From an uncultured Lutibacter sp. (GTDB taxonomy: Bacteria > Bacteroidota > Bacteroidia > Flavobacteriales > Flavobacteriaceae): a stretch of DNA of 5,145 nt. This document shows, piece by piece, positions 588 through 5,145 of this stretch. A program made the translations under genes and the position numbers. Where the stretch lies: contig CAJXUO010000126.1 of assembly GCA_913061425.1 (NCBI GenBank), forward strand, positions 1 to 5,145, in the 5' to 3' direction. Within the stretch, counting starts at the first letter, position 1. Every line of letters starts with the position of its first letter. A model generated the notes under the pieces. It was given only the letters and a program-made list of their open reading frames with translations. It had not been told where the DNA came from and searched no databases.

Positions 588-1493
588 TTAAACAAAATAT
601 GCGTTAATAGAAAGAAATAACAAACCAACAATTATTAATTCTCTAATTAACATTTTATTAAATAGCTGAACACAATTTGAAATAATTATAGTGAGTGGGA
701 AAAATAAAAATAGTTCATCCTTTTCAGGTGTAATTACAATCAAATATACGGCTACTAGCAAATGAATTATAATTAATAGCCAAGATGCTTTAATGTCATT
801 TAATAATGAATGAATTTTTAAACTCACAAATACGATAGAAAAAATCACCAGTACCGTTAAACATATAAGTGGAAATAATTCTGAAAATTTAGCATATGAA
901 AAGCTATAATAAAGGGTTAATTTATCATTAAAAGCGCCAGTATTGTCTGTGAAAAAATAATATGTAAACACTACAAAAAATGGAATTATTAAACCAACAA
1001 TAGGAATAATTAGGTTTCTAATTTCTTGTCTTTTTCTAATAATTATAGCCGCGTAAATTAAAATTAAAAACAAGATGCTCCAACTATAAACAAGCGTTGA
1101 AACTCCAATACACAAACCGCTGTCAAAGAGTTTTTCTTTGATATTTGTATTTGTTTTTAAACTATAAATTCGTCTAAAAGCTAACAACAAAAAAAAGTGA
1201 GCGTAAAAAATATTTTGAACTTCCAGAGTCTTTGGAAATATTCCAAAAAGAATTGTTAAAACTAATAATACATACGAGTTTTGTCCAGACAATTGGTTTT
1301 TTCTATTTATAAATCTGACTAAAAAAAACAGCAGTAAAAATAAAATTAGTTGCCCAATTTTTTCTACCACAATTCCTAAGGAATATAGTGGCTTTTCTAT
1401 TAAAAGAATTGCTGACAAATAATAACCTAAAAATAATGCACTAATAAATATTGCATGTATTGGTTTTGTTTTTCTAAAAAAATTGGCAATCAT
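588..1493 (-). CDS. DUF6427 family polytopic membrane protein, function unknown
   Basis: This 301-residue protein is extremely hydrophobic. It starts MIANFFRKTKPIHA, which resembles the short FF.KSKPI motif that opens flavobacterial DUF6427 proteins, and then shows about nine or ten hydrophobic segments (roughly residues 12-32, 41-61, 74-87, 95-106, 124-150, 160-181, 206-228, 238-255, 261-277 and 284-300). A conserved-looking N-IFYAHFFLLLAFRRIYSL stretch sits at about residues 94-112 between membrane segments. There is no signal peptide beyond the first membrane segment and no enzymatic motif that I recognise. The gene is divergent from the DUF6341 gene, with a shared 40-bp region between the starts. 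The length appears full and the start is the first ATG. The family assignment comes from recognising the N-terminus and membrane pattern; a function cannot be stated. Confidence 0.82.
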   Translation of the reverse strand: MIANFFRKTKPIHAIFISALFLGYYLSAILLIEKPLYSLGIVVEKIGQLILFLLLFFLVRFINRKNQLSGQNSYVLLVLTILFGIFPKTLEVQNIFYAHFFLLLAFRRIYSLKTNTNIKEKLFDSGLCIGVSTLVYSWSILFLILIYAAIIIRKRQEIRNLIIPIVGLIIPFFVVFTYYFFTDNTGAFNDKLTLYYSFSYAKFSELFPLICLTVLVIFSIVFVSLKIHSLLNDIKASWLLIIIHLLVAVYLIVITPEKDELFLFFPLTIIISNCVQLFNKMLIRELIIVGLLFLSINAYFV

Positions 1494-1513: not shown

Positions 1514-1543
1514 CAAAGTAAATATATTAAACAATGATTGCAA
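1514..1543 (-). promoter_or_regulatory. Candidate promoter for the DUF6427 gene
   Basis: On the minus strand TTACTTTG (1521-1514) matches TAnnTTTG except for the second base. A TTG (1543-1541) lies 19 bp upstream, within the range seen for Bacteroidetes -33/-7 pairs. The box ends 20 bp before the ATG at 1493. The mismatch at a conserved A makes this only a moderate candidate. It abuts the plus-strand box directly, so the two promoters would overlap. Confidence 0.4.
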
Positions 1544-1734
1544 ACAATATTTTTAGAGTTATCGGTGATTTTTTCACAAATGTTGTATTCGCCCCTCTAA
1601 ATTGGGTAAGAAACGACGTTTCTAACTGGTGGGTTCAAAACACAATTAGTTGGATTTTAATGATTATCTGTATGGTAGCGTTTGTTTATTGGATGGGTCA
1701 ATTGAAAAAATTCAAAAAAGAAGGAACAGAATAG
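1534..1734 (+). CDS. DUF6341 family small membrane protein, function unknown
   Basis: The 66-residue product has an amphipathic, tryptophan-rich N-terminal half (FAPLNWVRNDVSNWW, about residues 19-33), one strongly hydrophobic segment at about 38-54 (SWILMIICMVAFVYWMG), and a lysine-rich tail (KKFKKEGTE) that should lie in the cytoplasm by the positive-inside rule. I recognise it as the small flavobacterial DUF6341 family, whose members are near this length, so the gene appears complete. It has its own -7/-33 promoter and lies 42 bp ahead of trmB on the same strand, which suggests co-transcription. Its first four residues, MIAN, are the same as those of the divergent DUF6427 protein, although the rest is unrelated. 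No function is known to me; a small accessory subunit of a membrane complex is possible but only a guess. Confidence 0.8.
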   Translation: MIANNIFRVIGDFFTNVVFAPLNWVRNDVSNWWVQNTISWILMIICMVAFVYWMGQLKKFKKEGTE

Positions 1735-4740: not shown

Positions 4741-4992
4741 ATGTCAATACAAGAATTAAAAGAAAATATTGAAAAAGCATTAGAAGAAATTAGACCTTTT
4801 TTGATGGCTGATGGTGGAAATATTTCTCTTGTAAGTATTGATAATAATGTTGTTAAAGTTAAATTAGAGGGTGCTTGTATCAGTTGTTCTGTCAATCAGA
4901 TGACTTTAACAAACGGTGTTGAAGCAACAATTAAACGTTATGCCCCTCAAATTGAAAAAGTAATTGAGGTGAGCCAAGAACTTACTAATTAA
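4741..4992 (+). CDS. NifU family protein (Nfu-type Fe-S scaffold or carrier domain)
   Basis: The 83-residue protein consists only of the NifU C-terminal (Nfu) domain. It shows EEIRPFLMADGGNISLVSI (about 15-33), matching the family's IRP.L..DGG....V, and then VKLEGACISCSVNQMTL (40-56) with the CxxC pair C46 and C49. In Nfu proteins two monomers use this pair to hold one [4Fe-4S] cluster, which is passed on to target apoproteins. The length is normal for a stand-alone Nfu domain, with no N-terminal A-type or IscU-like domain. The ATG lies 3 bp after the mrp stop, so the two are almost certainly co-translated from one mRNA. Because Mrp here has a single cysteine, this protein supplies the only classical cluster-binding motif of the pair. 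I leave the symbol blank since nfuA and nifU both imply larger proteins. Confidence 0.93.
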   Translation: MSIQELKENIEKALEEIRPFLMADGGNISLVSIDNNVVKVKLEGACISCSVNQMTLTNGVEATIKRYAPQIEKVIEVSQELTN

Positions 4993-5015
4993 GTATAATA
5001 CTTCACAAAATTCCT

Positions 5016-5023
5016 TATATTTG
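5016..5023 (+). promoter_or_regulatory. Perfect -7 box upstream of the contig end
   Basis: TATATTTG matches TAnnTTTG exactly, 23 bp after the nifU-like stop. Transcription would start near 5030, next to an ATG at 5031, so a leaderless or nearly leaderless message would result if that ATG were used. No TTG is seen at the -33 distance. It may drive the next gene, most of which would lie beyond the contig end. Confidence 0.35.
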
Positions 5024-5030
5024 TTTCATT

Positions 5031-5096
5031 ATGAAAACATCGTGGACAGAATTACTACTACTTTTAAAATTTCTAATTATTAGAAATCCCGAATAG
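5031..5096 (+). CDS. Possible tiny ORF, 21 codons, unrecognised
   Basis: An ATG at 5031 opens a 21-codon frame ending in TAG at 5094-5096. The peptide starts MKTSWTE, has a leucine- and isoleucine-rich core (about residues 8-17) and ends RNPE. It follows a perfect -7 box by only 7 bp. I do not recognise it. It may be a short membrane peptide, the start of a longer gene broken by a sequence error near the contig end, or chance. A perfect inverted repeat (5069-5087) lies inside it. Confidence 0.2.
   Translation: MKTSWTELLLLLKFLIIRNPE
5069..5087. repeat. Perfect 9-bp inverted repeat with a 1-base centre
   Basis: ATTTCTAAT and ATTAGAAAT flank a single T. As RNA the innermost pairs would open into a loop, leaving a weak AT-rich stem with no U-tract after it, so it is a poor terminator. 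A protein-binding site or chance in AT-rich DNA are the alternatives. Confidence 0.5.
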
Positions 5097-5103
5097 TTTG
5101 TGC

Positions 5104-5145
5104 CTGTCTCTTATACACATCTGACGCTGCCGACGAATAGAGAGG
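5104..5145. other. Untrimmed Illumina Nextera (Tn5) adapter with i5 index; not genomic DNA
   Basis: Positions 5104-5122 read CTGTCTCTTATACACATCT, the 19-bp Tn5 mosaic end used in Nextera libraries. Positions 5123-5136 read GACGCTGCCGACGA, the read-1 side adapter in reverse complement. Positions 5137-5144 read ATAGAGAG, the reverse complement of the i5 index CTCTCTAT (the 502 index of the Nextera sets), and base 5145 (G) is the first base of the outer primer that follows. The exact order of all four parts cannot be chance. The biological sequence therefore ends at about 5103. Confidence 0.98.

What the first reader, a model, noticed from the sequence alone, without database searches (positions are those of the whole stretch)
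5104..5145. Contig ends in sequencing adapter with a readable library index
The last 42 bases match, in order, the Tn5 mosaic end, the Nextera read-1 adapter, an i5 index (CTCTCTAT in reverse) and the first base of the flow-cell primer. This is contamination carried into the assembly. Any gene, repeat or transposon end called here would be false, and database matches to this stretch would only link other untrimmed assemblies.
Basis: partly seen in the sequence, partly recalled or inferred. Interest (0 to 1): 0.75.

Follow-up and report, generated by a model that had tools for sequence, protein, structure and literature searches.

The report
Untrimmed Nextera adapter at contig end
The last 42 bases of this bacterial contig match a commercial sequencing adapter and its sample tag exactly, and the same kind of adapter ends many other contigs of this assembly, so the tail is almost certainly laboratory DNA, likely read past the end of a short fragment, and should be cut off at base 5103.

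Summary
Bases 5104-5145 are, base for base and reverse-complemented, the Tn5 mosaic end (19), the rest of the Nextera read-1 adapter (14), i5 index S502 (8) and one P5 base, as expected when read 2 runs through a short insert. The window is a whole contig of a 381-contig, 78%-complete draft genome that holds 147 mosaic-end matches. I examined 139: each lies at a contig end and points outward, 70 P5-side, 69 P7-side. Every readable index gives one pair, S502 (43 of 43) and N707 (45 of 45). The 9 genomic bases before the junctions show the palindromic Tn5 target bias. The mosaic end is absent from the 298 other family genomes searched, and relatives continue with ordinary DNA. It is an artefact, not biology.

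In passing: the last intact frame, 5031-5096, has 21 codons and is found in 69 of 149 family genomes; in 67 of the 69 it lies 51-246 bases before a homogentisate-dioxygenase-like gene. It may be an undescribed leader peptide; the adapter break cuts it off from that gene.

The parts
5104..5122 (+). Tn5 mosaic end, reverse complement as seen in read-through
   Evidence: exact match; printed in PMC3906532
5123..5136 (+). rest of Nextera read-1 (P5-side) adapter, reverse complement
   Evidence: exact match; sequence printed in PMC3906532
5137..5144 (+). i5 index S502 (CTCTCTAT) as reverse complement ATAGAGAG
   Evidence: 43 of 43 readable P5-side ends in the assembly, the window's included, carry the same index; index table in PMC7589761
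5145..5145 (+). first base of the P5 flow-cell primer (reverse complement)
   Evidence: one base in the window; longer P5-side ends of the assembly go on matching the P5 primer without mismatch, up to 50 adapter bases (primer also shown)
5095..5103 (.). last 9 genomic bases, the presumed Tn5 target site (AGTTTGTGC); 5 of 7 informative positions fit GNTYWRANC
   Evidence: weak for one site, strong across 139 junctions
5031..5096 (+). 21-codon micro-ORF, last intact feature before the adapter; not part of the artefact

Best explanation
Bases 5104-5145 are Nextera library adapter that was not trimmed and was likely carried into the assembly by read-2 reads running off the end of short inserts. 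Shown: the 42 bases match adapter, index and primer in the right order and orientation; both adapter sides sit at outward-facing contig ends of the same assembly; one index pair is present; the junctions carry the Tn5 target bias. Inferred: Tn5 tagmentation cut the genome after 5103; the insert was shorter than the read; the assembler joined genomic and adapter k-mers and stopped where adapter paths from many fragments merge. The cap on adapter length fits a de Bruijn graph with k near 55. The true sequence ends at 5103.
For: 42-base match. Own assembly: 147 mosaic-end matches (up to 2 mismatches; 146 exact), 0 for the reversed control pattern; 70 P5-side and 69 P7-side; 139 of 139 examined are terminal, adapter length 24-52, 137 of 139 without mismatch to the full adapter (the first 24 bases were exact by selection). 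i5 ATAGAGAG 43 of 43; i7 CTCTCTAC 45 of 45. Junction 9-mer: palindrome r 0.89 against at most 0.69 at 45 control offsets; consensus score 3.69 of 7 against 2.72, p 4e-21. 1 of 299 family genomes has the exact mosaic end, the window's own. No mosaic end in the 13 same-genus loci around this place; 7 of 12 readable ones share sequence through the micro-ORF and go on with ordinary DNA. Shared genomic bases plus adapter bases never exceed 55 between junctions of one side. Read-through is described in PMC3906532.
Against: None found against adapter origin. Read-through rather than, say, a chimera is not proven, because no reads are held. The k-mer account rests on lengths only; 42 of 139 ends carry 24-40 adapter bases, shorter than it simply predicts. 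Two P7-side ends depart from the adapter by what looks like one extra base. 8 of the 147 matches were not examined one by one.
Confidence: 0.99

Rival explanations
1. A natural Tn5/IS50-type transposon end or other native repeat lies here.
For: The first 19 bases are a Tn5 transposase recognition sequence, and it is highly repeated in the assembly.
Against: The mosaic end is a laboratory hybrid of the natural outside and inside ends (recalled). What follows is adapter, index and primer, not transposon. Two different tails with one index each fit no element I know. No exact copy in 298 other family genomes. PF02281 gave no match in the assembly, but that search also rang in none of its 14 controls, so it says nothing.
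Confidence: 0.003
2. The DNA really carries an engineered Tn5 insertion, for example from a mutant library.
For: Engineered transposons also use the mosaic end (recalled).
Against: 139 of 139 examined copies are at contig ends, and those long enough have sequencing index and primer behind the mosaic end. A marker gene was not searched for.
Confidence: 0.002
3. Adapter, but joined to the genome by a ligation or PCR chimera rather than by read-through.
For: Without reads the two cannot be told apart at one junction.
Against: The Tn5 target bias at the junctions says that the genomic side ends at tagmentation cuts, as read-through predicts; both sides are equally common (70 and 69).
Confidence: 0.03

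Closest known systems
Nextera XT adapter read-through (PMC3906532; abstract and passages seen)
   Same: The same 33 bases at the 3' end of read 2, followed by index and primer, when the insert is shorter than the read.
   Different: There it is described in raw reads; here it survived into an assembled contig.
Untrimmed public assemblies, e.g. the SRR3933xxx MetaBAT MAGs
   Same: The identical 42-mer, index included, at contig ends; contigs of runs SRR3933248 and SRR3933389 also show i7 CTCTCTAC, the window's own pair (runs read from titles).
   Different: Other organisms; whether the window comes from that project is not known.
TnaC-type leader peptides (for the neighbouring micro-ORF only; recalled)
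   Same: Very short frame with a tryptophan and a conserved end next to the stop, before a gene that looks like aromatic catabolism.
   Different: No sequence match was sought or found; no stalling or regulation tested; another phylum.

Membership tests
Nextera/Tn5 adapter read-through artefact | Mosaic end followed by read-1 adapter, i5 and P5 in order | tested here: met
Nextera/Tn5 adapter read-through artefact | Lies at a contig end and points outward | tested here: met
   the window is contig G000:C126, 1-5145 (length 5145); 139 of 139 examined ends
Nextera/Tn5 adapter read-through artefact | Both adapter sides, one index pair per library | tested here: met
   70 and 69; 43 of 43 and 45 of 45
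Nextera/Tn5 adapter read-through artefact | Tn5 target bias in the 9 bases before the junction | tested here: met
   preference AGNTYWRANCT in PMC3046479 (passage)
Nextera/Tn5 adapter read-through artefact | Absent from related genomes | tested here: met
   0 of 298 others, exact match; 0 of 13 same-genus loci at this place
Nextera/Tn5 adapter read-through artefact | Only read tails cover the contig past the junction | not testable with these tools
   no reads held
Natural Tn5/IS50 element | Native outside or inside end, with transposase | tested here: inconclusive
   exact hybrid mosaic end, not a native end (native ends recalled); PF02281 search had no working control
Leader peptide (micro-ORF 5031-5096) | Short translated frame conserved just upstream of one gene, same strand | tested here: met
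   67 of 69 micro-ORF genomes, exceptions G000 and G064; codon position 3 most variable, stop codon varies. But 52 genomes have the gene without a detected micro-ORF
Leader peptide (micro-ORF 5031-5096) | Its translation changes expression of the downstream gene | not testable with these tools
   needs an experiment

The most novel reading that the evidence does not exclude
The adapter itself admits no novel reading. The novel thing lies just before it: the 21-codon frame 5031-5096 (family consensus roughly MKPFWxDLLxxLxFLIKRNPE) is a ribosome-sensing leader peptide that controls the homogentisate-dioxygenase-like gene behind it in much of this bacterial family, a Bacteroidota counterpart of TnaC-type control for tyrosine/phenylalanine breakdown. 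A small membrane protein made together with that enzyme is the main alternative.
Probability: 0.4. Interest if true: 0.55.

Novelty: not a real feature. Interest (0 to 1): 0.12.

Why it matters
As biology the 42 bases do not matter; as data quality they do. This draft genome has 147 mosaic-end matches for 762 contig ends; the 139 ends examined hold 5,809 bases of adapter. The same 42-mer with its index occurs in at least 113 stretches of public genomes, and in phage records adapter lies inside or across annotated features. Here it also marks a break between a conserved micro-ORF and its probable partner gene.

Tried and rejected
Natural Tn5 end, engineered insertion and chance were considered and rejected (see rivals). 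The PF02281 search gave no match but also rang in none of its 14 control genomes, so I do not use it. E. coli complete genomes gave no match to the 42-mer. I looked for another contig of the assembly overlapping 4904-5103: only the window itself, so the assembly offers no true continuation. A paper search by run numbers found 129 papers for any one of five terms; the 20 listed all matched only the loose term SRP078, so the project was not identified. Searches for published surveys of adapter in assemblies were seen as listings only and I cite none of them. That adapter length is set by the assembler's k-mer is suggestive only. For the micro-ORF, Rfam on 6 sources at gathering scores, NCBIfam and Pfam gave no match to it; folding the micro-ORF with the DNA up to 30 bases into the next gene gave a mean z of -0.81 over 25 cases against mononucleotide shuffles, no clear sign of a terminator. 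Paper searches: 'homogentisate' with 'leader peptide' and 'flavobacteri' 0 papers, 'LIKRNPE' 0 papers; this does not prove that it is unpublished. A search for peptides read from the adapter's minus strand found 4 papers, listing only, not used.

Full report
What was checked. The last 42 bases of the window are CTGTCTCTTATACACATCT (mosaic end), GACGCTGCCGACGA (rest of the read-1 adapter), ATAGAGAG (index) and G. PMC3906532 (abstract; passages) gives the first 33 bases as the sequence to trim from read 2 of Nextera XT libraries and explains that, when the insert is shorter than the read, the 3' end of each read holds the reverse complement of the opposite adapter, followed by index and primer. 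PMC7589761 (appendix passages) lists S502 = CTCTCTAT and N707 = CTCTCTAC. The 19-mer with up to 3 mismatches is expected 0.01 times in the window by chance and occurs once, exactly.

The same assembly. The window is all of contig C126 in a 381-contig, 1.85 Mb, 78%-complete genome. That genome holds 147 mosaic-end matches (71 forward, 76 reverse, up to 2 mismatches) and 0 for the reversed control pattern; 146 are exact. With the first five bases of either tail added, 70 are P5-side and 69 P7-side; the other 8 of 147 were not examined one by one. I fetched 138 ends and took the window's own, 139 in all. Each has one mosaic end on the outward strand, and from it to the contig end 24 to 52 bases (median 44); 137 of 139 match the full adapter without mismatch (the first 24 bases were exact by selection), and two P7-side ends depart from it by what looks like one extra base. 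Where the index and the base behind it are present, the i5 is ATAGAGAG in 43 of 43 and the i7 CTCTCTAC in 45 of 45. One dual-indexed library, S502/N707, explains all of these.

A further sign of tagmentation. The genomic bases before the 139 junctions are biased mainly within 11 bases of the junction. Taken as a 9-base block they form a palindrome: the correlation of column deviations with their own reverse complement is 0.89, against a mean of -0.03 and a maximum of 0.69 at 45 internal control offsets; the score against GNTYWRANC is 3.69 of 7 at junctions and 2.72 inside contigs (Mann-Whitney p 4e-21; the 6,255 control 9-mers overlap, so the p value is only indicative). PMC3046479 (passage) reports AGNTYWRANCT as the preference of native Tn5 and says that sites of transposase-made libraries weakly resemble it. 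The window's own 9-mer AGTTTGTGC scores 5 of 7. The test uses the adapter only to place the junction.

Relatives. The exact mosaic end occurs in 1 of 299 genomes of the family, the window's own. In the genus, 14 of 14 genomes searched, the window's own included, have the upstream Mrp-like gene; in 13 loci from the other 13 genomes there is no mosaic end. I aligned the region behind the gene in 11 of them and read G007 later; in G008 the contig ends inside the gene. In 7 of these 12 the homology runs through the micro-ORF at 5031-5096 and then into a gene whose copy in G013 matches Pfam HgmA_N (NCBIfam hmgA far below its cut-off); the other 5 have other sequence there. In the window's own assembly only 39 residues of that gene are found, at the end of contig C226 with 90% identity, so most of it seems to be missing. 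No other contig overlaps 4904-5103.

How it got there (inferred). Tn5 cut behind 5103, the insert was shorter than the read, reads kept the adapter, and the assembler followed genomic k-mers into adapter k-mers until paths from many fragments merged. In support, adapter tails stop at 52 bases in this genome and in 86 copies from the SRR3933xxx MAGs, while two other runs reach 72 and 74 (the pattern needed at least 42 bases); and for junctions of one side in this genome, shared genomic bases plus adapter bases reach at most 55. Graphs with k near 55 and 77 would do that; the k values are recalled and no assembler log is held. Tails of 24-40 bases in 42 of 139 ends are not explained by this alone.

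Other records. It occurs in 10 stretches of viral contigs. Similar matches: 30 phage records, 8 plasmids, none in 20,395 E. coli records. Contigs of runs SRR3933248 and SRR3933389 also show the i7 CTCTCTAC, those of SRR3933385 and SRR3933253 show GGACTCCT (runs from the titles), so the window may come from the same project; this is a guess. In three phage records looked at, the adapter lies inside an annotated terminase gene, overlaps the start of a hypothetical protein and lies inside a recombinase-like feature.

Noticed beside it. In a search of 149 family genomes drawn the same way 119 have the dioxygenase-like gene. 67 of the 69 have that gene 51-246 bases downstream on the same strand. 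The two exceptions are the window's own broken assembly and G064, whose micro-ORF match is weak and which has no match to the gene. 52 genomes have the gene without a detected micro-ORF, which speaks against a universal role; the association is still far from chance (Fisher p 2.8e-7, not corrected for kinship). Among 23 micro-ORFs of exactly 21 codons, column entropy is 0.66, 0.45 and 1.09 for codon positions 1, 2 and 3, and the stop codon varies, as expected of a translated peptide. A (T/G)AT(A/T)TTTG box lies within 45 bases upstream in 25 of the 26 micro-ORFs that the script picked up (it missed 1 of 27). Regulation by this peptide is a hypothesis.

Verdict.

Noticed in passing
window 5031-5096 (+): 21-codon micro-ORF MKTSWTELLLLLKFLIIRNPE, found in 69 of 149 family genomes and in 67 of those 69 lying 51-246 bases before a homogentisate-dioxygenase-like gene; no Pfam, NCBIfam or Rfam match. 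Possibly a leader peptide.
   Followed up: partly
window 5016-5023 (+) and the same place in relatives: A (T/G)AT(A/T)TTTG box shortly before the micro-ORF start, in 25 of 26 sequences checked; resembles the Bacteroidota promoter -7 element (recalled).
   Followed up: partly
G000 contig C226, 3331-3447 (L300): Only 39 residues of the expected next gene were found in the assembly, at a contig end that shows no adapter.
   Followed up: partly
LR595870.1 1297-1329; LR597643.1 50020-50060; MZ092003.1 27885-27918: Nextera adapter inside or overlapping annotated phage features: terminase gene, start of a hypothetical protein, recombinase-like feature.
   Followed up: partly
window 5073-5145 (-): Open frames read out of the adapter on the minus strand (LSIRRQRQMCIRDR..., PLYSSAASDVYKRQ...) could be called as partial genes.
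   Followed up: no
window 588-1493 (-) and 1534-1734 (+): Two genes of unknown-function families DUF6427 and DUF6341, next to a YicC-like gene.
   Followed up: no
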